A stretch of DNA of 64,000 bases, taken from positions 744,001 through 808,000 of the forward strand of contig JBBPEB010000002.1 in assembly GCA_039096225.1 (NCBI GenBank), in the 5' to 3' direction. Under the pieces are notes generated by a model that searched no databases, was not told where the DNA came from, and saw only the letters and a list, made by a program, of their open reading frames with translations. A program made the position numbers and the translations under genes. Numbering within the stretch: the first letter of the stretch is position 1; the number at the start of each line of letters is the position of its first letter. Source of the DNA: Blastocystis sp. Blastoise (Eukaryota > Sar > Bigyra > Opalinata > Blastocystidae). Shown in pieces: positions 736-64,000 of this stretch.

Positions 736-746
736 TTATTGAGATA

Positions 747-805
<59 letters not shown>

Positions 806-4382: not shown

Positions 4383-4435
4383 TCTTCTTTCATTTCTATT
4401 TGTATTTAATGTTTCTAGTATTTCTATTATTCATA

Positions 4436-8929
<4,494 letters not shown>

Positions 8930-8937
8930 AGAATCTA

Positions 8938-8960
8938 AAAAAATAAACAAAAATAAAATT
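8938..8960 (-). terminator. RNA polymerase III terminator of tRNA-Phe
   Basis: On the minus strand directly after the tRNA there are three T runs (TTTT, TTTTT, TTTTTTTT) separated by single bases. This is the usual oligo-T pol III stop. The LINE ORF begins right after it. Confidence 0.6.
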
Positions 8961-8962
8961 AC

Positions 8963-9034
8963 GCCTTGACCCGGGATCGAACCAGGGACCTTATGATCTT
9001 CAGTCATACGCTCTCCCGACTGAGCTATCGAGGC
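8963..9034 (-). tRNA. tRNA-Phe (GAA)
   Basis: Complete cloverleaf on the minus strand: acceptor GCCTCGA with TCAAGGC, D arm GCTC/GAGC, anticodon stem TATGA/TCATA with loop CTGAAGA (anticodon GAA, Phe), and T arm CCTGG-TTCGATC-CCGGG. Internal promoter boxes A (TAGCTCAGTCGG) and B (GGTTCGATCCC) are intact and there is no intron. The acceptor stem has one C-A mismatch (pair 5-68), and the base after the stem is G rather than the usual A, so it may be a mildly degenerate or atypical copy. Confidence 0.93.
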
Positions 9035-28265: not shown

Positions 28266-30673
28266 TTATATAAACATGATGTACAGAATATAATAATAGT
28301 TACATATAGGTTCATATATGTTATATACACAGCAATAATCTTCGTCATTGTCTTCATTTGATTCCTTGAAGTTATGGATATCACATACTATAACATTTGT
28401 TGGAACTATTTTTTTGATATTAATATATGTCTCATCTAGATTATATGGATCTTTATATATTAAATTATTTGAATTATATATTTTAAAAAAAAGACCACTC
28501 TTTGATGATTTCGTATCAGGATAATGATGAGCCTTTACAATAAATAAGTCTTCTATTTGAATGTATTCTAGTGCCTTTACTAAGCAAACATGGCTTGTTC
28601 CATTTATGTAATCATAATACATCAAATAGGAGTTATCTAATTTTTCTACTCCTTCGTCAATGTCTGTGCACGTAAAAGATAATGAATCATTGATCAAAAT
28701 CTCCGAATATCTAAAGATATTTAATTTCTTGGTGTTCTCCATTACATTATGAAAATTACTTGAATCTCTTAATAATTCTATTCTGCTTTCTGTAGTTATA
28801 TCACCAACATTTAGATTTGAAAATAATTTATTATTAATGTATACGCTATTCATTCTTATTATATGCTTCAAGAATAACTCCGTAAATAATTGAGTATTAT
28901 TATTATTAATACTTTCTCTTATGCCCTTTACTGAATAAATCTTCTGATTTTGGTCAGTAACGTAGTAAACACACTCATAAGCATTAAATGTAACAACATG
29001 AGCTGCTATTGAACTACTCTCCGACTCTAATGAACTATTAATTATTGAAGATGCTATATCTATATCTATTATTTCTTTAAAAGCCATGCTAATTATTGAA
29101 GATTTATTGAAGAAGAATCTTCCATGTGTAAGACGTTTTATTGATGAATAAAACCTTTCAGATTCCCAGGTACTAGTATATTGAAGAGATCCGGCATTTT
29201 GAATTGATTTCGTTAAATGAGAGAAATAATGTATCTGACTATTGATAAATTCTTTTGGCAAAACTAGATCACATAAGAAGAGGAATATATAACACTTAGA
29301 GTTTATTATGCTTAAATCTTCTATTGTTAACATTTGATTCTTTAAAGTACATAACATAATTATATCAGCTTGAATTTCTACTAAAGGAACTAATAACGAA
29401 TCTGTCTGATTAAAGTCTGATATTATTAGTGGTAATATATATGAAGCAAAGAAGATTCTACTGTGTGATGTCATTTTATAAAAACTGGTTTCTTCCAAAG
29501 CGAAGCGAAATTGATTTTCACTATCATAGAAAAAAGAATTTACATATTCTAATCTACTCTTCAGTATTTTAATATTATCTGATGATAATTGTAGTCTCTT
29601 TAGTATTTCATCAGGCTTATTGTATTTATGTTTATTTAAAATATCTGTATATTTCATTGTGTCAAATCCTAATAATAATGACAGAAGAAGAACTATGGTG
29701 TTGTTAAACATGTGCATTGGATCAATATTATAGCTCGTTGCTGCATTAAAATATGGAAGTCTTTCGAATACACTTATTTTTGAATTAATACCGTTCATAG
29801 AAGTTCTTGATGAGGTTTCTTCTCTTGCTATCTCAATAGTTTCTTTTGTATTATCTTCACATATTATTGTAGAATATGCATCAGATTGGGTTTCACTCTT
29901 GAAATACTTAGTATAATTTATGCATTTAATACCGTTGATAATACAATCTTCTTTAACTGTTATTAGACTAGTAGAAATAGGATAGAAGATGGTTGTAGTT
30001 GTAGATGAAGGAGAATAATCTATGAATGGCTTTATAATTGAATACGAAGTCTTTATACCCTTATGGAAGTTATCGTTATCTTTTTGAATATGTAAATTAC
30101 AGAATCTGCATGGATAATTTGAAGCTGGTCCCGTGAATTCACCTATTTTCTGAATTTCAGCAGTATCACCATACACTTCTAAGAGAATTCCAACTACTCT
30201 TTTTTCTTCAAGCAAACCATTATTACAAACAAGCATTGGTATTCCATCTTTCAAAAGTAGAAGTTCTTTTACTAATAGCTGTAAAGCAATGCTACGTTCG
30301 TCTGTAGAAGAAACCGTAAATACCCAAAACTTCCTTTTATCATATAATCTTATGGGCTTATAATTTAGTAGTTTGATGAGTACTGGTTGGGAGCTTTTAT
30401 TCTTTTCTATTAATGGAGAATTATATACAGAAATTCCATCTGAAGTTACGGTGAAGAACAAAAATATATCACCGTTGTTATGAACTGTTTTCATGTACTC
30501 CTTAAAATTATCTCCATTCATGTATAAAGGAAGACTTTTATTTGAAACATAATTATCATGTAATGCTGGTTCTATATCTTCTTTATTATATAATTCAATA
30601 TCTTGAATTAATTTTTCGCTTTTGAGGAGTTGCTTAATACGAGATATCAGTGGTAAAACTGTGGTATATCTAA

Positions 30674-30711
<38 letters not shown>

Positions 30712-31038
30712 CATAATATCATATAATTAATATAATATAATTTAATATAATATAATATAATGTATAGATTTTATACATAACGATATTTATATATATTTAT
30801 AACTATGTTCTATTAAATATGTATATATATATATTAATGTATATCATTGAATATTATATATAATATAATATATATTATATAATTATATATAACATATATA
30901 TATAGGTATATACGAGAGCCGTCACAATTTACAGAGTTGCAATTATTTCTAGAATTTGTAGAAATATTTCTACCTGTATTAAAGTCAACTAATATTTTAC
31001 ATTCTTCACACCAAAATATATTTATACTAAATGGCATA
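28266..31038 (-). CDS. CACTA-type transposase of transposon 2, 3' part (interrupted gene)
   Basis: The last exon (about 28266-30680) encodes about 800 residues. Blocks: TVTSDGISV (DG block), a conserved PxRFCN cysteine pair after GEFTGPASNYP, YNIDPMHMFNN (DPMH block), KMTSHSRIFFASYILP, and WESERFYSSIKRLTHGR. All have counterparts in the same order in the transposase at 12000-14809 and in Tnp2/CACTA transposases. About 230 further C-terminal residues follow, without a recognised domain. The preceding exon (30914-31038) holds FWCEECK...CNSVNC, a zinc cluster. At 31038 the coding sequence stops at the ATA duplication of the nested element and resumes at 38948. The reading frame is otherwise open, so disruption is by insertion. 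Confidence 0.8.
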
Positions 31039-43348: not shown

Positions 43349-45078
43349 TTATAATAATAATAAATAGAGTCATAATAGAATATAAAATATTAAAAATTAG
43401 TCTAATTAAATATGGTTGACTGTTTGATAGGAATGTTAGAATGGGTAAAATGATTTTAATTGCTTCTAAAACAGTATAATACGTTTTTATGTCACTAAAT
43501 ATAAAAATATTATAGCTTAAAGAATGTTTTTTGTCTTTCAAAAGAACTCATTTTTTGTAATTGTGGCTTTAAACAAAAGAGATTCAAGTTATTCTTTACA
43601 AATTAAATAATAAATTCAATATATATGTATATGAATATAAAATTCGTTTTAATAAAAGTGAATGTGTTTGAAAAAAATGTTAAAAGTTTTTTAGAGTTTT
43701 TTAAAAATAACTTATTTGTTTTATAAACTTTATTTCATGTACAATAGGTAAAGTATTTTAAAGTACTAAATCTATTTATGATATAGAATGTAATTTTTGG
43801 TTTATATTTAGTTTTTCGTTTCATTTAATGAAATGATTTTGAAAACATTATAAAAAATGAATAGATAATTTTTAAAAATAATTCTTTTTTCTTTTATAAA
43901 AAAAATTCTATATATGATAAATATTTATAAAAGAACTCTATGAGTTATTATCGATTATATAGAATAATATATATTTTTTAATTATTAAAAATATTTTTTG
44001 TTTTTAAAAATCCAAATTGAAATAGGAGTAATAAAAAAAGAATAATATTATAAACATTTGAATCTGATAGTATTAAACTATAGCAACTATTACATATAAT
44101 TAAACATTTATTAATACGAAAAAGGGGTATAATAAAATATTAAATATATATATATATAATAGTATATATAAAAAGAAATGATAGAATATAAAAAATCAAA
44201 TAGAGATAAAAATGATAATAATTTAAAATGAAATAAAATAATATATGAGAAAATTCATAAAAGAATAAATAATATTTTTTAGACAAAAGAGTAAGTTGTT
44301 TCTCATAATAATAATTATATAGAATAATTTAAAATAAAAAATAAATACTTAAAGATAAGATATAACTGATAATATTAAGTTTTAAAATAAAAAATTTTTT
44401 ATAATCATAATAATATTGTTTAAAGTATAAAATATTTATAAAACTAAATGAATTTATAATTACAAAAACAGTTATAAATAAATTAACAAAGAAAAGTGAA
44501 TTAATATAGAAATATAAATATAAATATAAATATAAATATAAATATAAATATAAATATAAATATAAATATAAATATAAATATAAATATAAATATAAATATA
44601 AATCTAAACTTAAATCTAAATCTAAATAGAAATCTAAATAGAAATATAAATAGAAATAGAAATAGAAATAGAAATAGAAATAGAAATAGAAATAGAAATA
44701 GAAATATGAATAAGATCAAAAATAAAACACAAGAGCTAATCAATTATTATTAATAAACAATAAATATATATAATCAATAATAAAAATAGCTAAAATGATA
44801 CTAAATAAAAAAGGAAATAATACTCAAAAAAATGTAATATAAAATGTTAAATAGGAATTATCAATAAAGTATGAATTGAATTATTTAGAATATACTAAAC
44901 TAATAACTAAACAATAGAAGATAACAACTAAAACAATTGAAATAATAATTTATAAAATATGAAATAGTCTTCATCCTAAAAATAAAAAAAATAGAAATGA
45001 ATAACAAAAACATAAAAATAAACATAATATTAAAAAAAAACATAAAATATAACAATTAAGAGATGACAACTATCAAAA
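43349..45078. other. Gene-free AT-rich DNA
   Basis: No gene seen. It contains the hexamer arrays listed separately. Confidence 0.5.
44512..44706. repeat. Hexanucleotide arrays (ATAAAT)n and (GAAATA)n
   Basis: About 15 units of ATAAAT (44512-44604), then mixed CTAAAT/AGAAAT units, then about 10 units of AGAAAT/GAAATA to 44706. Related hexamers that mutated stepwise. Confidence 0.9.
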
Positions 45079-45080
45079 CT

Positions 45081-45116
45081 CAAGCGTAGGTGGCGTAGCC
45101 AGTCGTGAAACGCTTG
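45081..45116. other. GC-rich double hairpin at the edge of the viral array
   Basis: CAAGCG...CGCTTG (45081-45086 / 45111-45116) encloses TGGC-GTA-GCCA (45091-45101). It lies exactly where the diverged Rep gene loses homology. Its GC content and hairpin-plus-CCACC context resemble the Helitron-like end at 43320, but CTRR is absent. Confidence 0.5.
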
Positions 45117-46020
45117 TATATATAAATATATTAATATACCATTTTATATCGCTATTCTTTAAATAATATGAACCATCACCTAATTTGTTTGGACCTAATT
45201 CGCAAAGTTTTTTTGCTGTATAGGTTTTTCCCAAACCAGTTTCGCCCCATATATATATAACTACTGGAGATTCTACTCTTTTCTTTTCATTAAAATCATA
45301 GATTAATCTCTTAATTGCTTGTGAATGTAAGAGTGTAAATCCCGGAAATTCGTGCCATATAGCATCGTAAGTATTACCATTCCTTATTGCTGTAGCTACT
45401 TCTTCGGAAATTTTTTTCGGATGTTTTTTATTTTTATAATATTTAACATCTGTTTTAATAAATCTAATAGGACCAGGTGATAACGGAGAAGGTTCACTAC
45501 TTATGTTTCTTGATTCTAAGTTATACAGTCTTCCATTGAAAGTTTGACTTGCAAATAAATCACGATGAGTACCACTTGTTATAGCTCCATAGCCTCTAGT
45601 ATTTTGGTTACGATATATTTCATGTAAATTATTTATCTATATATATATATATATATACATATATATATGTATATACCTCTGATAAATAATATAGTACGTT
45701 TTCACGAGTTCCATCACGAGGTCTAACATCTGTATGTTCCAACTGAAGCATTCTTCGGACCTTATTTCTTCTTCTTCTTGTTGTTAATTCAATGTATAAA
45801 TGTGTATGCGTATTATGTGTTTCGTTATTAGGTTCAGTTACATACGCCACATACATAATTTCCTGTGGTAAACCATTTTCCTCCCAATTAGGTAGAGTCT
45901 CTTGAAAAAAGAAATCTCGGTCATCACCGAATAGTGTACAAAACCAATATTGACTTTGTGGTGACTATATACATATATACATAATAATTATATAAATACA
46001 ACATTATTATTATCACTCAT
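45117..46020 (-). pseudogene. Diverged CRESS Rep gene, 3'-truncated
   Basis: From ATG 46020, with at least two short introns (one near 45970-46002, one about 45637-45675), the product parallels the Rep of the neighbouring units: QSQYWFCTLFGDD (HUH motif I region), HTHLYIEL (motif II), LEHTDVRPRDGTRENVLYYLSE (motif III tyrosine region; kept here as key residues Y-Y-L-S-E), KKHPKKISEEVA and Walker A GETGLGKTYTAKK. Homology ends right after the segment preceding Walker B, at a stop and a GC-rich hairpin. It is clearly a different lineage from the 49341-51066 Rep. Intron positions appear shared. The part kept includes both nuclease and Walker A but no Walker B or motif C. Confidence 0.75.
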
Positions 46021-46340
46021 ATTTATAAAATATCAAATAAATATTAAAATAAATTATAAAATAAATTATAAAATAAAATAAATATAAGCCACGTCAGCAT
46101 AATTAAAAATACAGAATATGCCCTTATATCTTGTCAGGACCTAATCACCAGTCAATAAAAATTAAATTGTACCCATTCCCAAAACTCTTTTTTTGCTATT
46201 TTTAGGGTCTAATTCCTTCTGGATAAAAAGTTATTTCAATTTAAAGGTTTGGGACCCTAATTATAAATATTAAGAATTACACTACAACCAAACTCAACTT
46301 ATCCAATCCGATCGGAGAAACTCAAGATTCCTCCAATCAA

Positions 46341-46382
46341 ATTGAGCGATGACGCATTATTACATCACAATTTGCTCTCAGC
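46341..46382 (+). promoter_or_regulatory. Candidate rolling-circle origin, copy 1
   Basis: CATTATTAC at 46355-46363 fits the CRESS nonanucleotide NANTATTAC. It lies in an imperfect stem-loop: CAAATTG before it and CAATTTG after it, with three more pairs next to the loop. A second inverted repeat, TATTCACGGG / CCCGTGAATA, lies about 200 bp downstream. Confidence 0.6.
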
Positions 46383-46871
46383 GAAACACGAAACAAAGAT
46401 CATCATAAGAGTATTTGACTCGAAAGTCAGAAGTAAATCTTACAATTAGTTGATCTTGATTTTTTATATCTATATTGTCTTTGTTTTCTATTCTTTCGAA
46501 CCACCTTTCTAATATATTACTACTTGAGAAATTCAACTCAATGCACATGTTCATGTGTATTCACGGGAAAGTTTTTTTACATTCGCGGCTTTTACCCGTA
46601 TATACCGTTCTTTATATTTAGCCGCCCCGTGAATATCTTTGTGAGTGAGAGCTGAGAGCAAATGCTCAGTTTTGTGGTTGTATAGTACTCTCGGATCCTT
46701 ATCTTGTTTTATTGTAGAAGTTCACAAAGAGTATGGTCGCGCAGTCGAGTTTGGTGTTCGATTTTTTTTTTTTTTTTTTTATGTTTTTTTTTAAAAAGAA
46801 TTAACAAAACAGTGTTTTTAATTATATATTATTATATTAGACAAGAATTAATGTTTGTAGTGTTAGTATAT
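46383..46871. other. Large intergenic region of unit 1
   Basis: Non-coding, with higher GC than host DNA. It holds the inverted repeat TATTCACGGG...CCCGTGAATA (about 46557-46636), a short hairpin CTGAG-AGCAAATG-CTCAG near 46648-46665, and a T18-T20 run at about 46760-46780. It probably carries promoters and origin accessory sites. Confidence 0.6.
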
Positions 46872-47618
46872 TTAGTGTCGTAATCTATCTGGTAGATGTT
46901 GAGCATAGTATACCATAGGTGATGTTCCTGCTGTTTGTGCAGCGGCAACGTATCTTGTAGCTTCGTCGAACAATGCAGTGATAACGGTATTATATTGTGG
47001 TTCTGTTCTGAAAGTCATTTGTCCTCCTTCTGAAATATTATACATAATAGGAAATGTGTTGATTCCTCCCATTTGGTATATAAAAACTAGTATTGTTTCT
47101 GCTTTTGTAAAATCATCGGATGCATAGTAGATGGGTAGTGTGAAATCATAGGCGAGTTGTTCTGCAGTGAATGGATAGGTATAGAGTAAACCGTTTAGTC
47201 TATATATATATTCTTTTTTGACTCCGTTTTTGTTAATTGTGTAGACTGTGTTTATAATTTGTTTGATAGTAGAGTTGCAGAGTTTTTTAATGTTCTTTGC
47301 ATTTTCGTCGTCACCTGTAGCGCTTGGTATAAATATTTGAATTGGTATAGTATAATCTGTTGATGTTAATAGTGTTCTAGCTTGAGCTACGTACATTCTT
47401 CCACATTTTTTGGCTACAAGCATTAATTGGTGCCTAAGTTTGTGTTTATTTGCGATTCCACCTACGGTAGTATCTTCGGCGATAGTTGCCCAATTTGTTC
47501 TAAAAGAATTAACTGCATTGTTATAAGTGGTTACAGCGTTTGAATTTCTATTATATCTTCTTCTTCTATAATAGGTACGTTGAGTACCTCTATATCTGGA
47601 TGAGTATCTATAAGGCAT
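46872..47618 (-). CDS. Arg-rich capsid-like protein (248 aa), unit 1
   Basis: The N-terminus has an Arg/Tyr-rich tract (residues 3-25, with an RRRR run), the nucleic-acid-binding arm typical of CRESS-virus capsid proteins. The remaining about 210 residues are of mixed beta-like composition without a recognised domain. No intron. It is transcribed divergently from the 412-residue gene across a 198-bp region. By position and basic arm it is a structural-protein candidate. A DNA-binding non-capsid role is possible, because the neighbouring 412-residue protein could be the main capsid. Codon use is less AT-skewed than in host genes. Confidence 0.55.
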   Translation of the reverse strand: MPYRYSSRYRGTQRTYYRRRRYNRNSNAVTTYNNAVNSFRTNWATIAEDTTVGGIANKHKLRHQLMLVAKKCGRMYVAQARTLLTSTDYTIPIQIFIPSATGDDENAKNIKKLCNSTIKQIINTVYTINKNGVKKEYIYRLNGLLYTYPFTAEQLAYDFTLPIYYASDDFTKAETILVFIYQMGGINTFPIMYNISEGGQMTFRTEPQYNTVITALFDEATRYVAAAQTAGTSPMVYYAQHLPDRLRH

Positions 47619-47673
47619 TTATTGTAAATAAAATAAATAAAATATGATATGATTTGATTAATAATTATTAATG

Positions 47674-47776
47674 GAGTCAGTTTATCTGAATATATAAATT
47701 TGTTTTTAGAGACGGTTTATCTGAATATATAAATTCGTATTAGGAGACAGTTTATCTGTATATATAAATTCGTTTT
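47674..47776. repeat. Three direct repeats between divergent viral genes, unit 1
   Basis: Three about 35-bp copies of GTTTATCTGAATATATAAAT followed by TCGT/TTGT. They sit in the 198-bp gap between the two divergent genes; TATATAAA in each could be a TATA element. Candidate bidirectional promoter or iteron-type protein-binding sites. Confidence 0.75.
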
Positions 47777-47816
47777 CTTATAAATATGTTTTGTTATTTT
47801 GCATAAATTATTTTAA

Positions 47817-49055
47817 ATGTCTAGTTTAGGTACTATAATAAATGACAAGTTGTCAATGGCTAGTTCCTCTGCGGGAGCCCTTTATCTTAAGCGTTACGTT
47901 AATCCTTGTGATGATACTTCTATACCTGTTGACGGTGTACCTGATGGCCAAACCCACATGATTTATACTTTAAATAATAAGTTTAATATATCTATAGATC
48001 AAGATACATTTGTAGATCCTAGAGCTGTTGTCCCAGATTTATATAATAATTTTACTATAATTGCAACACCATGGTCTACTTATCCTATTTTGATTTATGG
48101 TACATTTACTTGGTATAATACTGTGGATAAAACATCATCATCTCAAACATGTATTATGGGTGTTAAAGATCCTAATTGGCAGCAAAATCAAGAAGATTTT
48201 AATTTAGGTCGTGGATTATTTCGTGGTTGTACATTAAAATGGGCTGGTAATACTAATAATATGCAAGGTCTTATATATGGTATTCAAGTACCGTATTGTG
48301 TAGATACTATGTATACTACTAGTGGTAGTGTAGAATCTCAAGATTTATCTTATAAAGCTTTTAATAGTTATATGAATCCTTATATTCCTTTAGATTCTAA
48401 TGCTATTACTTCTTATTCTCCAAAATATAAAGTATTTAATGTCCCTGATGGTTGTTATATGCCTCAACATTTATCTTATGGTTATAAGAATTATTATAGG
48501 CCACCTATATTTCAAAAGAAACAACTTGATACAGGAGATAGTTATGAATATTTTATTAATGGATTATTAGGAAGTGCTAGTGCTCAAATGAATATATTTG
48601 ATTATGATACTTGGATGTCTAAAAGAATATTTACTAAGGTTATGTTACCTATAGAAGTAACTGAATATGTTCCTTCTTTCTTACATACTGGATTTAATTT
48701 TGGTATTATTAGAGTTGAAGGTTCAAATTTTAACAATCCATTTACTTTAAAAATATGTAATGGTTATGAGTTAGTTCCTTCTTATAATAGTGAGTATTTC
48801 CCATTATTAAAGAATCCTCCTTTATTAGATGAACAAGCTCTTTATGCTTGTGCTATTTTAACTCAATCATTAGATTTTTGTTATCCTTCTTCTTATAATG
48901 ATTTTCAAACTATGTGGAATGGTGTAGTTGATTTCTGGAATAAATTTAAAAGGTCTTGGAATAGTGAAACTGTTCAAAATATAGCTACAGCTGCTAGTGC
49001 TATACCTGGTGTTTCTCCATGGGTTCAAGGAATAAATACTTTAACTAAATTTTAA
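47817..49055 (+). CDS. 412-residue viral protein, putative capsid, unit 1
   Basis: A single uninterrupted plus-strand ORF. Composition is rich in Tyr, Asn, Ser and Pro with beta-strand-like segments (FTIIATPWSTYPILIYGTF, TKVMLPIEVTEYVPSF), no membrane segment and a C-terminal amphipathic tail (DFWNKFKRSW...AASAIPG). Such a tail is reminiscent of capsid precursors, but I recognise no family motif. Its length is close to bacilladnavirus-type capsids. No Arg-rich arm is present, so one of the two structural candidates may provide DNA binding and the other the shell; this is inference. Confidence 0.5.
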   Translation: MSSLGTIINDKLSMASSSAGALYLKRYVNPCDDTSIPVDGVPDGQTHMIYTLNNKFNISIDQDTFVDPRAVVPDLYNNFTIIATPWSTYPILIYGTFTWYNTVDKTSSSQTCIMGVKDPNWQQNQEDFNLGRGLFRGCTLKWAGNTNNMQGLIYGIQVPYCVDTMYTTSGSVESQDLSYKAFNSYMNPYIPLDSNAITSYSPKYKVFNVPDGCYMPQHLSYGYKNYYRPPIFQKKQLDTGDSYEYFINGLLGSASAQMNIFDYDTWMSKRIFTKVMLPIEVTEYVPSFLHTGFNFGIIRVEGSNFNNPFTLKICNGYELVPSYNSEYFPLLKNPPLLDEQALYACAILTQSLDFCYPSSYNDFQTMWNGVVDFWNKFKRSWNSETVQNIATAASAIPGVSPWVQGINTLTKF

Positions 49056-49149
49056 TTTATGTGTATATATATTTTTATTTGTCTTAAATTAATTTTGTTT
49101 TGTTCAATTTTTATTATTACTACTCACACTCACTGCACTTCAACACAAA

Positions 49150-49227
49150 TATTATTTCACAATTTCACAATTTCACAAAATCACAATTTCACATTTTCAC
49201 AGATACACAATTTCACAATTGCACAAT
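49150..49227 (+). repeat. TTTCACAA tandem repeat after the 412-residue gene, unit 1
   Basis: About eight imperfect 8-10-bp units (ATTTCACA, AAATCACA, TTTTCACA, GATACACA) downstream of the ORF at 49055. Function unknown. Confidence 0.8.
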
Positions 49228-49340
49228 GTGTTGAGTTGCATATGAATTATATAACAAAACAAATAAGTTTTTAAAACAAAGATATAACTGAGAAAAGATA
49301 TGAAATCAGAAAAACTCAATAGATAATAAATATATAGAAT

Positions 49341-51066
49341 TTAGAATTCTTGTTTAATGTTTTGAGAGTCTGGGAGTATACAATAATCATCTTCGCTACT
49401 ATCCCATGAAAGACTTATAGGTTTATTATGATCAGAATATTCTTCATCGTCTTCTTCATTATCAGTGAAAGTGAGATCAATGAGTTCATTACTATATTCG
49501 TTATCTGAAGATGATAAATCTAGAATAGGTATAGGAGTATTAGGTCTTTTGTGACAGAAATTTGTTTTTTTAGGAGTAGTTATTTCAATAGTAGGAAGAG
49601 ATATACGAGGAGTTGTTGGAGGTGAGCTAAGGGTAAGTTCATTATCTAGTTCTATTTGTATGGGTATATTGACTGTTGGTTTGTATTGATTATTAATTTT
49701 CATCATAATATCAGCGGCTTGTATATATTTGGTTTCATCATCTTTATATAGTAGATTACGTCTGATACCTTTGATGTAATCATCTTTAGCTTTGCTATAT
49801 TTGAAATCAATAGTATTATCTTCAAGTAATTCATATTCATTGTAGAATCTTCTGAGTAGTTGTTCTAATTCATCATTTGAAAGTTCTTTGAAATTTTCTT
49901 TTAAGCTTCTATCAGACGTAAATATAATTAGAGGTGAGGTGATTTTTACTGTTGAACCTTTTGTTTCCACTCCTACATCATAATAATCTAAAATACGAAG
50001 AAGGTCTTTATCATTATAGATTTTTCTAAAATCATCAATAATGATGCCAAACTGACCTTTGTATCCATCCCACCTATAAATATAGAATATAATATAATAT
50101 ATACCATTTAATATCTCCATTCTTCATGTAGTAAGATCCTTTACCATCTTCATTTTCGCCTAGTTCACATATTTTTTTAGCTGTATAAGTTTTACCTACT
50201 CCAGTTTTCCCATATAAATATAAAACTATAGGTGCAGTATTTCTTTTTTTGGTATTAAAGTCATAGATTGCTTTTTTTATGTTATTTGAATGTAATAGGG
50301 CAAAGGAAGCATATTCTTCCCATATATCTTCATAAGTACAACCATTTTTTATCATTGAAGCAACTTCTTCAGATATTTTTTTTGGATCTATATATATAAT
50401 ATAAATTATAATGTATATACGTTTTTTGTTTTTAGAATATTTGACTTTATTATGAGTAAAATTCATAGGAGCTGTAGATATTGGGTCTATTCTAGCAAAG
50501 CTATTATTATTATTCATATTATAAAGAACACCATTATAAGTAGAAGCATTTATTAAATCGCGATGCATTCCATTTTGAAAGTTTGCTCCATATCCAAGTG
50601 TATTGCTTGTATTGTAATATTCATCTATTTCATTTATCTAATATTTATAATTAAATAATTAAATTAATATATATAAATATATACTTCACTTAAATAAATT
50701 AAAGTTGCCTCTCGTGACCACTCCCTTGGTCTTACATCAGTATGCTCTAAGGATAGTAATCTTATTATCTGATTTCTTCTTAACCTTTTTTTCATTTCCA
50801 TATATAAATGTACATGAGTGTTGTTTGTAGTCGGAGATACTTCTCTTGATAAAGCAACATAGTTCTATATATATATATATATAATATATTTATATACTAT
50901 TTCAAATGGAAGACCATTACTATTCCAACTGGGTTGGATTACTTCATTAAAATGTAAAAGGTCTTCACCAAATAAAGTAAGAGTCCAATATTGAGACTGA
51001 CGGTTCTATATAACAATAACTTAAATATATTTATTAATATACAGGGTTAGTATTATTATTTTGCAT
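49341..51066 (-). CDS. rep: CRESS Rep (HUH endonuclease-SF3 helicase) with five introns, unit 1
   Basis: Six exons: 51043-51066, 50898-51005, 50685-50864, 50421-50637, 50105-50387 and 49341-50073. Introns are 31-47 bp, all GTATAT...TAG. The spliced length is 1545 nt, 514 residues. N-terminal HUH domain: motif I WTLTLFG (15-21), motif II HVHLYMEM (61-68), motif III region IYLSE with candidate nucleophile Tyr101; the usual YxxK lysine is not in place. SF3 helicase: Walker A GKTGVGKT (236-243), Walker B IIIDDF (281-286), motif C IIFTSD (about 320-325). An acidic Ser-rich C-terminal tail follows. It should nick the origin and drive rolling-circle replication. Host-type introns imply nuclear transcription and splicing. 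Confidence 0.88.
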
Positions 51067-51918
51067 TTTTTTTTTTTTTACTAAAAATTATAAAATAAAT
51101 TATAAAATAAATTATAAAATAAAATAAATATAAGCCACGTCAGCATAATTAAAAATACAGAATATGCCCTTATATCTTGTCAGGACCTAATCACCAGTCA
51201 ATAAAAATTAAATTGTACCCATTCCCAAAACTCTTTTTTTGCTATTTTTAGGGTCTAATTCCTTCTGGATAAAAAGTTATTTCAATTTAAAGGTTTGGGA
51301 CCCTAATTATAAATATTAAGAATTACACTTACAACCAAACACAACTTATCCAATCCGATCGGAGAAACTCAAGATTCCTCCAATCAAATTGAGCGATGAC
51401 GCATTATTACATCACAATTTGCTCTCAGCGAAACACGAAACAAAGATCATCATAAGAGTATTTGACTCGAAAGTCAGAAGTAAATCTTACAATTAGTTGA
51501 TCTTGATTTTTTATATCTATATTGTCTTTGTTTTCTATTCTTTCGAACCACCTTTCTAATATATTACTACTTGAGAAATTCAACTCAATGCACATGTTCA
51601 TGTGTATTCACGGGAAAGTTTTTTTACATTCGCGGCTTTTACCCGTATATACCGTTCTTTATATTTAGCCGCCCCGTGAATATCTTTGTGAGTGAGAGCT
51701 GAGAGCAAATGCTCAGTTTTGTGGTTGTATAGTACTCTCGGATCCTTATCTTGTTTTATTGTAGAAGTTCACAAAGAGTATGGTCGCGCAGTCGAGTTTG
51801 GTGTTCGATTTTTTTTTTTTTTTTTTTATGTTTTTTTTTAAAAAGAATTAACAAAACAGTGTTTTTAATTATATATTATTATATTAGACAAGAATTAATG
51901 TTTGTAGTGTTAGTATAT
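51067..51918. other. Large intergenic region of unit 2
   Basis: Same content as the first intergenic region; differs by one inserted T and one A/C change near 51325-51338. Begins with a T run and three TATAAAATAAAT units. Confidence 0.7.
51388..51429 (+). promoter_or_regulatory. Candidate rolling-circle origin, copy 2
   Basis: CATTATTAC at 51402-51410 in the same CAAATTG / CAATTTG stem-loop context as copy 1. Confidence 0.6.
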
Positions 51919-52665
51919 TTAGTGTCGTAATCTATCTGGTAGATGTTGAGCATAGTATACCATAGGTGATGTTCCTGCTGTTTGTGCAGCGGCAACGTAT
52001 CTTGTAGCTTCGTCGAACAATGCAGTGATAACGGTATTATATTGTGGTTCTGTTCTGAAAGTCATTTGTCCTCCTTCTGAAATATTATACATAATAGGAA
52101 ATGTGTTGATTCCTCCCATTTGGTATATAAAAACTAGTATTGTTTCTGCTTTTGTAAAATCATCGGATGCATAGTAGATGGGTAGTGTGAAATCATAGGC
52201 GAGTTGTTCTGCAGTGAATGGATAGGTATAGAGTAAACCGTTTAGTCTATATATATATTCTTTTTTGACTCCGTTTTTGTTAATTGTGTAGACTGTGTTT
52301 ATAATTTGTTTGATAGTAGAGTTGCAGAGTTTTTTAATGTTCTTTGCATTTTCGTCGTCACCTGTAGCGCTTGGTATAAATATTTGAATTGGTATAGTAT
52401 AATCTGTTGATGTTAATAGTGTTCTAGCTTGAGCTACGTACATTCTTCCACATTTTTTGGCTACAAGCATTAATTGGTGCCTAAGTTTGTGTTTATTTGC
52501 GATTCCACCTACGGTAGTATCTTCGGCGATAGTTGCCCAATTTGTTCTAAAAGAATTAACTGCATTGTTATAAGTGGTTACAGCGTTTGAATTTCTATTA
52601 TATCTTCTTCTTCTATAATAGGTACGTTGAGTACCTCTATATCTGGATGAGTATCTATAAGGCAT
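51919..52665 (-). CDS. Arg-rich capsid-like protein, unit 2
   Basis: Identical in sequence to the 46872-47618 product; see that entry for motifs and caveats. Confidence 0.55.
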   Translation of the reverse strand: MPYRYSSRYRGTQRTYYRRRRYNRNSNAVTTYNNAVNSFRTNWATIAEDTTVGGIANKHKLRHQLMLVAKKCGRMYVAQARTLLTSTDYTIPIQIFIPSATGDDENAKNIKKLCNSTIKQIINTVYTINKNGVKKEYIYRLNGLLYTYPFTAEQLAYDFTLPIYYASDDFTKAETILVFIYQMGGINTFPIMYNISEGGQMTFRTEPQYNTVITALFDEATRYVAAAQTAGTSPMVYYAQHLPDRLRH

Positions 52666-52720
52666 TTATTGTAAATAAAATAAATAAAATATGATATGAT
52701 TTGATTAATAATTATTAATG

Positions 52721-52823
52721 GAGTCAGTTTATCTGAATATATAAATTTGTTTTTAGAGACGGTTTATCTGAATATATAAATTCGTATTAGGAGACAGTTT
52801 ATCTGTATATATAAATTCGTTTT
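52721..52823. repeat. Three direct repeats between divergent viral genes, unit 2
   Basis: Second copy of the promoter-region repeats at 47674-47776. Confidence 0.75.
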
Positions 52824-52863
52824 CTTATAAATATGTTTTGTTATTTTGCATAAATTATTTTAA

Positions 52864-54102
52864 ATGTCTAGTTTAGGTACTATAATAAATGACAAGTTGT
52901 CAATGGCTAGTTCCTCTGCGGGAGCCCTTTATCTTAAGCGTTACGTTAATCCTTGTGATGATACTTCTATACCTGTTGACGGTGTACCTGATGGCCAAAC
53001 CCACATGATTTATACTTTAAATAATAAGTTTAATATATCTATAGATCAAGATACATTTGTAGATCCTAGAGCTGTTGTCCCAGATTTATATAATAATTTT
53101 ACTATAATTGCAACACCATGGTCTACTTATCCTATTTTGATTTATGGTACATTTACTTGGTATAATACTGTGGATAAAACATCATCATCTCAAACATGTA
53201 TTATGGGTGTTAAAGATCCTAATTGGCAGCAAAATCAAGAAGATTTTAATTTAGGTCGTGGATTATTTCGTGGTTGTACATTAAAATGGGCTGGTAATAC
53301 TAATAATATGCAAGGTCTTATATATGGTATTCAAGTACCGTATTGTGTAGATACTATGTATACTACTAGTGGTAGTGTAGAATCTCAAGATTTATCTTAT
53401 AAAGCTTTTAATAGTTATATGAATCCTTATATTCCTTTAGATTCTAATGCTATTACTTCTTATTCTCCAAAATATAAAGTATTTAATGTCCCTGATGGTT
53501 GTTATATGCCTCAACATTTATCTTATGGTTATAAGAATTATTATAGGCCACCTATATTTCAAAAGAAACAACTTGATACAGGAGATAGTTATGAATATTT
53601 TATTAATGGATTATTAGGAAGTGCTAGTGCTCAAATGAATATATTTGATTATGATACTTGGATGTCTAAAAGAATATTTACTAAGGTTATGTTACCTATA
53701 GAAGTAACTGAATATGTTCCTTCTTTCTTACATACTGGATTTAATTTTGGTATTATTAGAGTTGAAGGTTCAAATTTTAACAATCCATTTACTTTAAAAA
53801 TATGTAATGGTTATGAGTTAGTTCCTTCTTATAATAGTGAGTATTTCCCATTATTAAAGAATCCTCCTTTATTAGATGAACAAGCTCTTTATGCTTGTGC
53901 TATTTTAACTCAATCATTAGATTTTTGTTATCCTTCTTCTTATAATGATTTTCAAACTATGTGGAATGGTGTAGTTGATTTCTGGAATAAATTTAAAAGG
54001 TCTTGGAATAGTGAAACTGTTCAAAATATAGCTACAGCTGCTAGTGCTATACCTGGTGTTTCTCCATGGGTTCAAGGAATAAATACTTTAACTAAATTTT
54101 AA
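52864..54102 (+). CDS. 412-residue viral protein, putative capsid, unit 2
   Basis: Identical to the product of 47817-49055; followed by the same TTTCACAA repeat tract (about 54197-54274). Confidence 0.5.
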   Translation: MSSLGTIINDKLSMASSSAGALYLKRYVNPCDDTSIPVDGVPDGQTHMIYTLNNKFNISIDQDTFVDPRAVVPDLYNNFTIIATPWSTYPILIYGTFTWYNTVDKTSSSQTCIMGVKDPNWQQNQEDFNLGRGLFRGCTLKWAGNTNNMQGLIYGIQVPYCVDTMYTTSGSVESQDLSYKAFNSYMNPYIPLDSNAITSYSPKYKVFNVPDGCYMPQHLSYGYKNYYRPPIFQKKQLDTGDSYEYFINGLLGSASAQMNIFDYDTWMSKRIFTKVMLPIEVTEYVPSFLHTGFNFGIIRVEGSNFNNPFTLKICNGYELVPSYNSEYFPLLKNPPLLDEQALYACAILTQSLDFCYPSSYNDFQTMWNGVVDFWNKFKRSWNSETVQNIATAASAIPGVSPWVQGINTLTKF

Positions 54103-54387
54103 TTTATGTGTATATATATTTTTATTTGTCTTAAATTAATTTTGTTTTGTTCAATTTTTATTATTACTACTCACACTCACTGCACTTCAACACAAATATT
54201 ATTTCACAATTTCACAATTTCACAAAATCACAATTTCACATTTTCACAGATACACAATTTCACAATTGCACAATGTGTTGAGTTGCATATGAATTATATA
54301 ACAAAACAAATAAGTTTTTAAAACAAAGATATAACTGAGAAAAGATATGAAATCAGAAAAACTCAATAGATAATAAATATATAGAAT

Positions 54388-56113
54388 TTAGAATTCTTGT
54401 TTAATGTTTTGAGAGTCTGGGAGTATACAATAATCATCTTCGCTACTATCCCATGAAAGACTTATAGGTTTATTATGATCAGAATATTCTTCATCGTCTT
54501 CTTCATTATCAGTGAAAGTGAGATCAATGAGTTCATTACTATATTCGTTATCTGAAGATGATAAATCTAGAATAGGTATAGGAGTATTAGGTCTTTTGTG
54601 ACAGAAATTTGTTTTTTTAGGAGTAGTTATTTCAATAGTAGGAAGAGATATACGAGGAGTTGTTGGAGGTGAGCTAAGGGTAAGTTCATTATCTAGTTCT
54701 ATTTGTATGGGTATATTGACTGTTGGTTTGTATTGATTATTAATTTTCATCATAATATCAGCGGCTTGTATATATTTGGTTTCATCATCTTTATATAGTA
54801 GATTACGTCTGATACCTTTGATGTAATCATCTTTAGCTTTGCTATATTTGAAATCAATAGTATTATCTTCAAGTAATTCATATTCATTGTAGAATCTTCT
54901 GAGTAGTTGTTCTAATTCATCATTTGAAAGTTCTTTGAAATTTTCTTTTAAGCTTCTATCAGACGTAAATATAATTAGAGGTGAGGTGATTTTTACTGTT
55001 GAACCTTTTGTTTCCACTCCTACATCATAATAATCTAAAATACGAAGAAGGTCTTTATCATTATAGATTTTTCTAAAATCATCAATAATGATGCCAAACT
55101 GACCTTTGTATCCATCCCACCTATAAATATAGAATATAATATAATATATACCATTTAATATCTCCATTCTTCATGTAGTAAGATCCTTTACCATCTTCAT
55201 TTTCGCCTAGTTCACATATTTTTTTAGCTGTATAAGTTTTACCTACTCCAGTTTTCCCATATAAATATAAAACTATAGGTGCAGTATTTCTTTTTTTGGT
55301 ATTAAAGTCATAGATTGCTTTTTTTATGTTATTTGAATGTAATAGGGCAAAGGAAGCATATTCTTCCCATATATCTTCATAAGTACAACCATTTTTTATC
55401 ATTGAAGCAACTTCTTCAGATATTTTTTTTGGATCTATATATATAATATAAATTATAATGTATATACGTTTTTTGTTTTTAGAATATTTGACTTTATTAT
55501 GAGTAAAATTCATAGGAGCTGTAGATATTGGGTCTATTCTAGCAAAGCTATTATTATTATTCATATTATAAAGAACACCATTATAAGTAGAAGCATTTAT
55601 TAAATCGCGATGCATTCCATTTTGAAAGTTTGCTCCATATCCAAGTGTATTGCTTGTATTGTAATATTCATCTATTTCATTTATCTAATATTTATAATTA
55701 AATAATTAAATTAATATATATAAATATATACTTCACTTAAATAAATTAAAGTTGCCTCTCGTGACCACTCCCTTGGTCTTACATCAGTATGCTCTAAGGA
55801 TAGTAATCTTATTATCTGATTTCTTCTTAACCTTTTTTTCATTTCCATATATAAATGTACATGAGTGTTGTTTGTAGTCGGAGATACTTCTCTTGATAAA
55901 GCAACATAGTTCTATATATATATATATATAATATATTTATATACTATTTCAAATGGAAGACCATTACTATTCCAACTGGGTTGGATTACTTCATTAAAAT
56001 GTAAAAGGTCTTCACCAAATAAAGTAAGAGTCCAATATTGAGACTGACGGTTCTATATAACAATAACTTAAATATATTTATTAATATACAGGGTTAGTAT
56101 TATTATTTTGCAT
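54388..56113 (-). CDS. rep: CRESS Rep with five introns, unit 2
   Basis: Copy of the 49341-51066 gene shifted by 5047 bp. The exon-intron structure and encoded residues that I can compare are the same. All motifs are intact. Confidence 0.85.
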
Positions 56114-56143
56114 TTTTTTTTTTTTTACTAAAAATTATAAAAT

Positions 56144-56757
56144 AAATTATAAAATAAATTATAAAATAAAATAAATATAAGCCACGTCAGCATAATTAAA
56201 AATACAGAATATGCCCTTATATCTTGTCAGGACCTAATCACCAGTCAATAAAAATTAAATTGTACCCATTCCCAAAACTCTTTTTTTGCTATTTTTAGGG
56301 TCTAATTCCTTCTGGATAAAAAGTTATTTCAATTTAAAGGTTTGGGACCCTAATTATAAATATTAAGAATTACACTTACAACCAAACACAACTTATCCAA
56401 TCCGATCGGAGAAACTCAAGATTCCTCCAATCAAATTGAGCGATGACGCATTATTACATCACAATTTGCTCTCAGCGAAACACGAAACAAAGATCATCAT
56501 AAGAGTATTTGACTCGAAAGTCAGAAGTAAATCTTACAATTAGTTGATCTTGATTTTTTATATCTATATTGTCTTTGTTTTCTATTCTTTCGAACCACCT
56601 TTCTAATATATTACTACTTGAGAAATTCAACTCAATGCACATGTTCATGTGTATTCACGGGAAAGTTTTTTTACATTCGCGGCTTTTACCCGTATATACC
56701 GTTCTTTATATTTAGCCGCCCCGTGAATATCTTTGTGAGTGAGAGCTGAGAGCAAAT
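56144..56757. mobile_element. Partial third copy of the viral intergenic region
   Basis: Matches 51097-51710 up to the octamer GAGCAAAT, where unit 2 continues GCTCAG but this copy continues TGTGATG. It contains the origin nonanucleotide at 56449-56457. Confidence 0.85.
56434..56476 (+). promoter_or_regulatory. Candidate rolling-circle origin, copy 3
   Basis: CATTATTAC at 56449-56457 with the same flanking stem. Confidence 0.6.
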
Positions 56758-56771
56758 TGTGATGTAATAAT
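56745..56771 (-). other. Inverted origin arm at the right junction of the array
   Basis: These 27 bases are the exact reverse complement of 56450-56476, from the nonanucleotide through its downstream arm to CTCTCAGC. The inverted copy ends within the nonanucleotide (GTAATAAT at 56764-56771) and is followed by ATAT and a CACTA terminus. Confidence 0.85.
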
Positions 56772-60930: not shown

Positions 60931-61059
60931 TACCGTTGCCCAATTCAAGAATGTAATTGCGTCTATCAATATAATTTTTACGATGATGGTTATCACCTCG
61001 AATACTATCATTTTCATGATACAAATGTATGTTATAAAATAATTATCATTATTATATTT

Positions 61060-61500
61060 ATTATTATAGAAATACTATTATATATTATTATATATTATTA
61101 TATATTATTATATATTATTATATATTATTATATATTATTATATATTATTATATATTACTATATATTACTATATATTACTATATATTATTATATATTACTA
61201 TATATTACTTATATTATTATATATTATTATATATATTATTATATATATTATTATATATTATTGTATGTTATTATATATAATTTTATATTATTATATATTA
61301 TTATATATATTTTTATATTATTATATATAATTTTATATTATTATATATTATTATATATTATTATATATTATTATATATTATTATATATTACTATATATTA
61401 CTATATATTATTATATATTATTATATATTACTATATATTACTATATATTATTATATATTATTATATATTATATATATTATATATATTATTAAATTAATAA
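61060..61500. repeat. (TATATATTAT)n satellite
   Basis: About 40 near-identical 10-bp units (TATATATTAT, with TATATATTAC variants). Likely inside an intron, since a TATAG acceptor and coding-like sequence follow at about 61538. Confidence 0.85.
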
Positions 61501-61537
61501 ATGTAATAACTATTATTATTAACAAAAACTTTTTATA

Positions 61538-62213
61538 GAAATGTTCAAAATATGATGCTGATTATATAGAATTATTTAAACATAATACTATAAGAGAATC
61601 ATCATATGACTACTATAAAGATATGATATCAGATTCAATCAATAATCAAACAAATGATACTAATGATAGTATAAATTCTAATTATACTTCTATTACAATA
61701 ACTCAAGAAGAATGTAAAACTTCTCAAAATCTGAAAAAAATATTCATGAAACAAATGAATAATCAAAGTTTACTAAAATAAATACTTTTGACAAAGAAGA
61801 GGAAGTATATATAGAACAAGATATAGATGATAATTTAACAAAAGATGAAGAAGAATTAATTAATAAAATTAAAGATTCTACATCTTCAGTTGATATTACT
61901 AATTCATCATATATAGATAATCTTCTACAGATTCACAATAATAGAGATAAAAATAATATAGCTTCTATTAATTATATTCAACATGAAGATTATATAGATG
62001 AAGAGAAAAACGATATTAGTGAAGAGATATATGGCAAATGATATGATTCAAGCTTTATTAATAAATACAGAAATTGTATATACTGTTGACATAAATAAAC
62101 GTCAATCATTATTGGATCAATCTACTTATACAATTAATATAGTCTTTATAAAAACAGAATATAAACTAATGCTCTCTGATCCATTAAATGATACATTTGT
62201 TCTGAATTATTAA
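61538..62213 (+). pseudogene. Unidentified acidic protein remnant
   Basis: After a TATAG acceptor, coding-like sequence (YDADYIELFKHNTIRESSYD; acidic blocks EEEVYIEQDIDDNL) runs to a single TAA near 61778, continues in frame, then shifts frame near 62030 to MANDMIQALLINTEIVYTVD and ends at 62213. Asn, Asp and Glu dominate. No domain is recognised. Stop plus shift indicate decay. Confidence 0.4.
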
Positions 62214-62580
62214 AGAGTCATTCAGAATTTAAGACCATATCTATAGGTTAAGCTAAGAAGAGGATAAGAGAGAGATTTCCTAGAATCAACTACAACTATA
62301 TTCATTATACTGTTACTAATATTATACTTAATGAAAATTTATATAGTTATATCGTTTTAATAATAGAAGTAGTTAATAAAATGAATATAAATAATTAAGT
62401 ATTCTTCATGTTATTTGGTAAATAGAAAACCAATAATGAAATAGCTTTGAATAGTCACAGTATACCTAAGGATCTTCGTTTGTTATCATAGTATACCATG
62501 ATAGTAGGTAACATAAGTCTATTAACTCTATCTCCATCAGTAATCCTTCTTTGTGGTCTTTCATGGGTCTCAGTAGTGTA
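62214..62580. other. Non-coding DNA
   Basis: No gene or repeat identified. Confidence 0.4.
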
Positions 62581-62584
62581 GCTC

Positions 62585-64000
62585 TTGTCATTACAGGTAT
62601 ATATATGATATATAATATATATATATATGTAATGATAAGGATATATATAAAGATGTAGATGAGTTATATATTGATGTATATGGTTTTTGAATGTATTTGT
62701 GACATAATGTTATATATATAATATATATATTCTATATTAGTACTATATATAGTATATACATCTATATATAGTATATTATAATACTTATATAGAATATATA
62801 TATTATATAGAGTATATATAGTACTTATATGGAACATATATATATGATATATAGTATATATAGTATAGATATAACCTATATACATAAAGATATATATAAC
62901 TAGTATATAGAATGGTTTTACATAAAAAAATAATATCTCTTCGTAGTTATAATAATTTAGCATCTTTATAATACAAGTTATATATATCTTTATGTATATT
63001 GGTTATATATATACTATATATTCTATATAATATATATATGCTATATAAGTACTATTTATATATTCTATATAACATATATATTCTATATAAGTACTATATA
63101 TACTATATATAGAATATATATATGATATATATAACATTATATCACAGATGAATCTAAAGACCATTTACATCAATATATAACTCATCTACATCTTTATATA
63201 TATCCTCATATCATTTTACATATATATATAATATATGATATAATTTATATATACATTATATATATACCATTTATATATATCATTTATATATCATCTATTC
63301 CTTCTATGTATTATCTATTCCTTCTATATATTATCTTTATACCATCTATTCCTTCTATATATATCACATATATAATATCTATATATATCATCTATATATT
63401 ATCTATATATATACCATCTATATCTATATATTACTATATATTACTATATATCATCTATATATGACCTATTCTTTCTATGTATTATCTATATACCTTCGAT
63501 TCATCCTATATACATTATATGCATAATATCTATATATTATATATATATATCTATATGTCATATATATATTACCTATATACCATTTATATATCATTTATAT
63601 ATCATATATATATATCATTTATATATCATATATTCATTCTATATACATTATATACATAATTTCTATATATTATATATATGTTATCTATATATATTTTATA
63701 TATTATCTATATATCATTTATATATCATCTATTCATTCTATGTATTATCTATTCATTCTATATATTATCTATATACCATCTATTCATTCTATGTATTATC
63801 TATTTCTTCTATATATTATCTTTATACCATGTATTCCTTCTATATATATCATATATATAATATCTATATATATCATCTTTATATTATCTATATAATATCT
63901 ATATATTATCTATATATCATTTATATATTATCTATATATCATTTATATATCATGTATATATCATGTATATATCATGTATTCATTCTATTTACAATCTATT
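62585..64000. repeat. TA-rich satellite region
   Basis: Largely TATATATCATTTATATATCATC- and CTATTCCTTCTATATATTAT-type units of about 10-24 bp. An earlier part (62690-63180) is roughly inverted-symmetric (TATATAGTACTTATATAGAATA and its complement around 62950). No coding capacity beyond Tyr/Ile runs. Confidence 0.75.

What the first reader, a model, noticed from the sequence alone, without database searches (positions are those of the whole stretch)
49341..51066. CRESS-virus-type Rep gene split by five tiny host-style introns
Seen: joining six segments at GTATAT...TAG boundaries (introns 31-47 bp) restores a 514-residue HUH-SF3 Rep with motif I, motif II, Walker A, Walker B and motif C in order; the unspliced frame is full of stops. 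Known: most CRESS viruses have compact Reps with no or at most one intron. Inference: a circular ssDNA virus or plasmid adapted to the nucleus of an intron-rich protist, with splicing possibly controlling Rep expression.
Basis: partly seen in the sequence, partly recalled or inferred. Interest (0 to 1): 0.9.

Follow-up and report, generated by a model that had tools for sequence, protein, structure and literature searches.

The report
Five-intron viral Rep in Blastocystis chromosome
A gut protist's chromosome carries tandem copies of a small virus-like DNA element whose replication gene is cut by five tiny introns with the host's own splice signals, an unusual case of a minimal virus apparently relying heavily on host splicing.

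Summary
The minus strand 51066→49341 has six Rep exons and five introns of 37, 33, 47, 33 and 31 nt. GTATAT…TAG occurs five times in the sense strand, exactly at the introns, against 0.62 in shuffles. Homologues support the junctions. A related Rep 3.3 kb away (Rep B) lacks introns 2 and 4 with contiguous protein and has introns at sites 1 and 3; intronless Reps support intron 5. The host is the stramenopile Blastocystis sp. Blastoise. The Rep lies in a 5047-bp unit repeated head to tail in a chromosome, with a 412-aa ORF weakly matching noda-like capsids and a basic 248-aa ORF. A second locus has one unit. The insertion's right end falls at a CATTATTAC nonanucleotide. 'Host-style' is half right: splice signals match, but all five introns are shorter than any of 47 host introns estimated (73–550 nt). 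Best reading: a recently integrated, probably spliced CRESS virus whose Rep intron content changes between relatives. Endogenous Reps in Blastocystis and CRESS Reps with predicted introns were known; five compact introns and the gain/loss series appear new. No RNA evidence was available.

The parts
51043..51066 (-). Rep A exon 1 (8 codons)
51006..51042 (-). intron 1, 37 nt, phase 0; Rep B has an intron (35 nt, donor GTATTT) at the same site
50898..51005 (-). Rep A exon 2 (motif I region YWTLTLF)
50865..50897 (-). intron 2, 33 nt, phase 0; absent from Rep B with contiguous protein
50685..50864 (-). Rep A exon 3 (HUH motif HVHLY; Tyr motif IYLSE at its end)
   Evidence: (weak Viral_Rep match, E 0.15, below cut-off)
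50638..50684 (-). intron 3, 47 nt, phase 0; shared with Rep B (40 nt there)
50421..50637 (-). Rep A exon 4 (linker)
50388..50420 (-). intron 4, 33 nt, phase 1; absent from Rep B with contiguous protein; stop-free if retained
50105..50387 (-). Rep A exon 5 (Walker A GKTGVGKT)
50074..50104 (-). intron 5, 31 nt, phase 2; tblastn pieces of intronless relatives P0003 and P0005 meet here without a missing residue
49341..50073 (-). Rep A exon 6 (Walker B IIIDDF, motif C, Arg finger, acidic tail; stop TAA)
54388..56113 (-). second, identical Rep A gene (offset 5047)
45120..46020 (-). Rep B: divergent 5' part of a related Rep, introns at sites 1 (45999-45965) and 3 (45676-45637), none at sites 2 and 4, cut off near the site-5 donor at the border of a dispersed host repeat
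46035..51082 (.). unit 1 of the head-to-tail repeat (5048 bp)
51083..56129 (.). unit 2 (5047 bp)
56130..56757 (.). third, partial copy (628 bp, intergenic block)
56745..56771 (.). right end of the insertion: exact 27-nt reverse complement of 51403-51429, ending at the nonanucleotide
51402..51410 (+). candidate origin nonanucleotide CATTATTAC (copies at 46355 and 56449)
   Evidence: no significant hairpin
47817..49055 (+). 412-aa ORF, probable noda-like capsid protein (copy at 52864-54102)
46872..47618 (-). 248-aa ORF with Arg-rich N-terminus, perhaps a structural protein (copy at 51919-52665)
   Evidence: no usable match

Best explanation
This is an integrated CRESS-type DNA virus (provirus or endogenous viral element) in a chromosome of Blastocystis sp. 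Blastoise. Its Rep gene carries five genuine spliceosomal introns. Shown: anatomy, tandem units, homologue-supported junctions, host-type splice signals, and purifying selection between Rep A and Rep B. Inferred: the nuclear transcript is spliced at GTATAT/TAG sites to give a 514-aa HUH-SF3 Rep. Rep would nick CATTATTAC and drive rolling-circle copying. The 412-aa noda-like protein (perhaps with the basic 248-aa protein) would form the particle. A Rep-nicked molecule integrated with one end at the origin, and the 628-bp direct repeats then allowed one unit to become two. I think it likelier than not (about 0.6) that the introns were already in the infectious lineage, kept tiny by genome-size pressure, and that introns 2 and 4 were gained after Rep A and Rep B split.
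For: GTATAT..TAG hits equal the five introns, 0 of 500 shuffles reach 5. Rep B is 147/257 aa identical over exons 2-5 and contiguous across sites 2 and 4, with introns at sites 1 and 3. Intron 5: pieces of P0005 (114-191, 192-267) and P0003 (95-127, 128-204) meet without a missing residue; those of P0134 (101-187, 187-263) overlap by one. dN/dS 0.26, with dS 1.50 near saturation. Host donors: GTATAT in 15 of 28 resolved CCT introns. Two uninterrupted further ORFs, open in all three units, one matching 'Capsid protein alpha' at E 3.6e-6. Tandem units 99.9% identical. The right end is a 27-nt exact copy ending at the nonanucleotide.
Against: No transcript data. No exogenous relative: none confirmed in four viral-contig scans, which find close relatives only. 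No single exon passes a Pfam cut-off, and genome searches with PF02407 and PF00910 find only Rep C, not Rep A. The capsid match is weak, its two main aligned blocks scoring only E 0.3-0.4 each; the fold attempt failed (pLDDT 29.5). No significant origin hairpin, and the nonanucleotide pattern is not enriched in the window (41 found, 46.9 expected). Only one insertion event of this unit is seen, so post-integration intron gain is not excluded.
Confidence: 0.72

Rival explanations
1. The introns were gained by the host lineage after an intronless virus integrated; Rep A and Rep B are domesticated or long-endogenous genes that now use host splicing.
For: 61 of 66 Rep relatives carry both Rep domains in one predicted protein (gene predictions blind to introns, so biased); Rep C on the same contig is an intronless endogenous Rep. 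Splice signals are the host's. No free virus found.
Against: Intron lengths 31-47 nt (35 and 40 in Rep B) lie outside 47 host introns estimated at 73-550 nt. The two other ORFs are open in all three units, which is odd for an old domesticated locus. The three Rep A copies do not differ, introns included, so the integrated copies look young relative to the Rep A/B divergence.
Confidence: 0.27
2. The introns are not spliced; Rep A is a decayed pseudogene with AT-rich insertions.
For: No RNA data.
Against: The five insertions all have host-type GTATAT/TAG ends, sit where homologues are contiguous at sites 2, 4 and 5, leave every exon open, and dN/dS between A and B is 0.26.
Confidence: 0.05
3. 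The tandem is an assembly artefact or contaminating viral contig.
For: Units are 99.9% identical.
Against: The same insertion with the same flanks occurs once more on C15 with one unit and 13 differences. The left flank belongs to a dispersed host repeat listed at 38 further places. The exact number of units is less certain.
Confidence: 0.04

Closest known systems
Endogenous Rep-like sequences of Blastocystis hominis ST7 (PMC3198968, passages seen)
   Same: CRESS-type Rep in a Blastocystis chromosome; 7 listed there
   Different: Here a whole unit with capsid-type ORF, tandem, and five introns; the word intron does not occur in that paper's main text
Whole CRESS virus integrations in Entamoeba and Giardia (PMC7493932, passages seen)
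   Same: Rep plus Cap integrated in a gut protist, including a 10-kb tandemly repeated element in Giardia
   Different: Different host group; the word intron does not occur there; about 5-kb unit with probable noda-like capsid here
Bacilladnaviridae (diatom CRESS viruses with nodavirus-derived capsid; Kazlauskas 2017, seen only as a reference title; host from PMC7493932)
   Same: Stramenopile host, HUH-SF3 Rep, probable noda-like capsid gene; genome of about 5-6 kb is recalled
   Different: Rep phylogeny not tested; five introns; no direct sequence comparison made with a named bacilladnavirus
CRESS Reps with predicted introns (PMC7077246: two introns, passages; PMC7468197: 36 crucivirus Reps with predicted splicing, passages)
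   Same: Spliced Rep in a small DNA virus
   Different: Five introns here; maize-streak-virus-type splice sites in cruciviruses, GTATAT sites like this host's here
CRESSV1 group, predicted to infect Blastocystis (PMC11281440, passages seen; original Kinsella 2022 not held)
   Same: Predicted host genus
   Different: Membership not tested; no CRESSV1 reference sequence was available by name

Membership tests
Cressdnaviricota-type Rep | HUH endonuclease fused to SF3 helicase with Walker A, Walker B, motif C | tested here: met
   Exon motifs HVHLY, GKTGVGKT, IIIDDF, TSD in order (motif names recalled); the exon-6 ORF matches solved Reps at E 7.5e-9 and 11 of 364 candidate proteins, best E 3.8e-8. 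No single exon passes a Pfam cut-off: HUH exon E 0.15, helicase exons E 0.0052 and 0.00098. Motif III reads YLSE, not the recalled YxxK.
Cressdnaviricota-type Rep | circular single-stranded DNA genome with nonanucleotide in a stem-loop | tested here: inconclusive
   5047-bp head-to-tail unit fits a circle; CATTATTAC lies at the insertion end; no significant hairpin (z -0.69)
Spliceosomal introns of Blastocystis | GT-AG ends with host donor and acceptor motif | tested here: met
   GTATAT..TAG at 5 of 5; host donors GTATAT in 15 of 28, best candidate taken per intron
Spliceosomal introns of Blastocystis | length within this host's range | tested here: not met
   31-47 nt against 47 host introns estimated at 73-550 nt, Mann-Whitney p 1.4e-4; other Blastocystis subtypes have mode 30 bp (PMC5608401, passages)
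Bacilladnaviridae | noda-like capsid protein | tested here: inconclusive
   E 3.6e-6 and 6.7e-6 to 'Capsid protein alpha' of 7xpg/7xgz over two blocks; that these are nodaviral is recalled
Bacilladnaviridae | Rep groups with bacilladnavirus Reps | not tested
CRESSV1 | Rep groups with CRESSV1 | not tested
   as above

The most novel reading that the evidence does not exclude
A CRESS virus lineage of Blastocystis has turned its Rep into a multi-intron gene while still infectious. It gains spliceosomal introns one by one (Rep B lacks two of Rep A's five) and keeps them near the minimum size the spliceosome accepts, so that splicing ties genome replication to a permissive nucleus. This would be intron gain caught in progress in a roughly 5-kb virus.
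Probability: 0.4. Interest if true: 0.8.

Novelty: new variant of a known kind. Interest (0 to 1): 0.64.

Why it matters
The genome has three related Reps: five introns (A), introns at sites 1 and 3 plus a donor at site 5 (B), and none across both domains (C). That makes recent intron gain or loss directly visible in one small gene with known protein homologues. It would show a minimal DNA virus depending on many splicing events, and the 31-47 nt size against an estimated 73 nt or more in the host tests whether genome-size pressure shrinks introns. It also gives Blastocystis an integrated CRESS unit with a capsid-type gene, strengthening the case that Blastocystis is a natural host. A practical point: introns hid this Rep from domain searches of the assembly (PF02407 and PF00910 found only the intronless Rep C), so screens for endogenous Reps may miss such genes in intron-rich protists.

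Tried and rejected
Free plasmid or virus: rejected for this assembly, since the unit sits in a contig with flanks shared by a second locus and the left flank is a dispersed host repeat. Alternative genetic code: not tested and not needed, as the exons and the two other ORFs read under the standard code. Rep C as a close intronless ancestor: rejected; exon 6 is 44% identical to it, against 37-52% for the 22 other relatives among the rows printed (25 of 79 rows, 77 relatives run), so C looks like a separate acquisition. Strong origin hairpin: not found. Relatives in IMG/VR: none confirmed in four scans with six peptide patterns each. Capsid fold: pLDDT 29.5, not used; the job for the 248-aa protein had not finished. 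A genome search with an Rfam rRNA family did not complete and was not needed. Three paper searches returned nothing. Searches listed no paper that, from titles and abstract starts, describes a five-intron CRESS Rep; Kinsella 2022 is not held. Host-intron caveat: lengths are estimated from profile continuity and introns bridged inside one match are missed; two adaptin matches are longer than their profile stretch and could hide short in-frame introns (C24:685915-686691, about 51 nt extra, with stops; C19:586424-586633, about 45 nt extra, no stop). In one search my script gave wrong coordinates for intron 3 of Rep B (a failed string search); one search gives the right ones.

Full report
WHAT IS THERE. 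The window lies at contig C15:744001-808000 of a 33.3-Mb, 34-contig eukaryotic assembly. Its beta-tubulin is 100% identical to WA158_006881 of Blastocystis sp. Blastoise. Another protein of the same contig, WA158_003499, is recorded on a contig of exactly the length of C15, so the host is Blastocystis, a stramenopile. The minus strand 51066 to 49341 shows six open exons of a CRESS-type Rep, separated by five segments of 37, 33, 47, 33 and 31 nt.

ARE THE INTRONS REAL? Four lines of evidence agree. (a) The pattern GTATAT-N19-60-TAG occurs 5 times in the 1726-nt sense strand, all at the five proposed introns. It occurs 0 times in the sense strands of the two neighbouring ORFs (1986 nt) and 2 times on the Rep antisense strand; 500 dinucleotide shuffles average 0.62 and none reaches 5. 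(b) A divergent Rep fragment (Rep B, window 46020-45120, minus) aligns to exons 2-5 with 147 of 257 identical residues. It reads straight through sites 2 and 4 without an extra or missing codon at the junction, while it has its own introns of 35 nt (donor GTATTT) and 40 nt at sites 1 and 3 and a GTATAT donor at site 5 near where it is cut off. (c) For intron 5, I ran six of the 77 relatives against the gene by tblastn. The pieces of P0003 and P0005 meet at the intron without a missing residue; those of P0134 overlap by one residue. For P0137, P0004 and P0006 the exon-6 piece starts at the same place but the exon-5 piece stops short, so they neither support nor oppose. (d) GC is 4-11% in the introns against 25-33% in the exons. 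Introns 1, 2, 3 and 5 carry an in-frame stop if retained; intron 4 does not. For introns 1 and 3 the support is the shared site in Rep B and the stops, not an intronless homologue. No transcript data were at hand, so splicing itself is inferred.

HOST-STYLE OR NOT? I estimated host introns from gaps between adjacent exon matches of conserved genes: 30 in nine chaperonin-family genes (10 further pairs skipped because too much profile was missing) and 17 in adaptin genes (29 of the 31 matches given, the two left out being single-piece genes; 5 pairs skipped). They range from 73 to 550 nt, median 133. In the chaperonin set 28 of 30 have a GTA..TAG solution, the best candidate's donor being GTATAT in 15 and GTATGT in 6. 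So the splice signals of the Rep introns are the host's, but the lengths are not: all five are shorter than all 47 (Mann-Whitney p 1.4e-4; with Rep B's two, 1.2e-5). In published Blastocystis subtypes ST1, ST4 and ST7 the intron mode is 30 bp (PMC5608401, passages seen). Two readings fit: genome-size pressure in a packaged virus, or an origin in a Blastocystis lineage with 30-nt introns followed by a host change. The caveat is that introns bridged inside one match are missed; two adaptin matches might hide in-frame introns of about 45-51 nt.

THE ELEMENT. Window 46035-51710 equals 51083-56757 at 99.9%: a 5047-bp unit present twice head to tail plus a third partial copy of about 628 bp. Each unit has Rep A, a 412-aa ORF on the other strand and a 248-aa ORF on the Rep strand. 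The 412-aa protein matches solved 'Capsid protein alpha' chains (7xpg, 7xgz) at E 3.6e-6 and 6.7e-6, mainly through an N-terminal and a C-terminal block; that such capsids are nodaviral is my recall. The 248-aa protein starts with an arginine-rich stretch and matches nothing usable. The same insertion, with the same flanks but one unit, lies inverted at C15:154.5-165.2 kb, so one insertion was probably copied by a segmental duplication. Units 1 and 2 differ at 5 alignment positions, all at or before window position 46294; unit 1 and the other locus differ at 13, none inside the Rep A gene, introns included. Protein searches of the whole assembly, whose counts are lower bounds, find the two further ORFs only in these three units and the helicase exon in these units and in Rep C. 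Searches with the Pfam families PF02407 and PF00910 find Rep C alone, so Rep A, split into exons, escapes them.

ENDS AND ORIGIN. The right end of the insertion, in both loci, is 27 nt exactly complementary to 51403-51429, reaching back to the nonanucleotide CATTATTAC at 51402-51410. The switch happens at a 13-nt inverted repeat (51417-51429 with 51698-51710). An end at the presumed nick site suggests Rep-linked integration; this is inference. Against over-reading it: the nonanucleotide pattern is common by chance in this AT-rich window (41 found, 46.9 expected) and no significant hairpin is predicted. The left end lies in Rep B at the border of a dispersed host repeat listed at 38 further places (40 of 250 candidates scored).

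SELECTION AND HISTORY. Between Rep A and Rep B dN/dS is 0.26 over exons 2-5, with dS 1.50 near saturation, so both appear to have evolved as functional genes after they split. Introns 1 and 3 (and the donor of 5) are shared; 2 and 4 differ. Since 61 of 66 Rep relatives hold both domains in one predicted protein (a list biased against introns), gain of 2 and 4 in the Rep A line is the shorter story, but loss in Rep B is not excluded. Rep C (C15:605027-603804) is intronless over both domains, has 38-43% GC in the two 500-nt bins inside it against 14-33% in the rest of the 9-kb stretch, and its first ATG is followed by TAA, so it looks like a relic. It is about as far from Rep A as other CRESS Reps are (44% over the helicase exon), hence probably a separate acquisition.

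HOW IT PROBABLY WORKS. Nuclear transcription, removal of five tiny introns by the host spliceosome, a 514-aa Rep, nicking at CATTATTAC, rolling-circle copying, and packaging with the noda-like protein. Anatomy, homology and selection are shown; the steps are inferred from the recalled biology of CRESS viruses.

WHAT IS KNOWN. Seven endogenous Rep-like sequences in Blastocystis hominis ST7 were listed in 2011 (PMC3198968, passages). Whole CRESS genomes, and one tandemly repeated element, are integrated in Entamoeba and Giardia (PMC7493932, passages). CRESSV1 viruses are predicted to infect Blastocystis (PMC11281440, passages). CRESS Reps with predicted splicing (36 cruciviruses, PMC7468197, passages) or two predicted introns (PMC7077246, passages) are reported. 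I saw no report of five; the searches were made, in an open-licence library only. I rate it a new variant of a known kind.

Noticed in passing
G000 C15:603804-605027 (L022:3804-5027, minus): Intronless endogenous Rep (WA158_003499) of clearly higher GC than its surroundings; ATG followed by TAA; the public gene model differs from this frame at its 5' end.
   Followed up: partly
window 43352-45123: End of a dispersed host repeat (38 further places listed at 83-98% identity, a lower bound) whose border truncates Rep B.
   Followed up: partly
window 736-9034: Retroelement-like stretch: reverse transcriptase ORF 1944-4382 and a 1523-aa ORF whose start overlaps a tRNA-Phe gene (8962-9034), suggesting insertion at a tRNA gene.
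   Followed up: no
window 13051-14550 and 28266-30722: Two ORFs with weak DUF4218 matches (transposon-associated by recall), below the Pfam cut-off.
   Followed up: no
window 49341-51066 versus C15:154.5-165.2 kb: No difference in Rep A, introns included, between two loci whose nearby flanks differ by several substitutions per kb in places; possible gene conversion or very recent copying.
   Followed up: no
window 61031-64000: Dense repeat arrays, direct and inverted.
   Followed up: no
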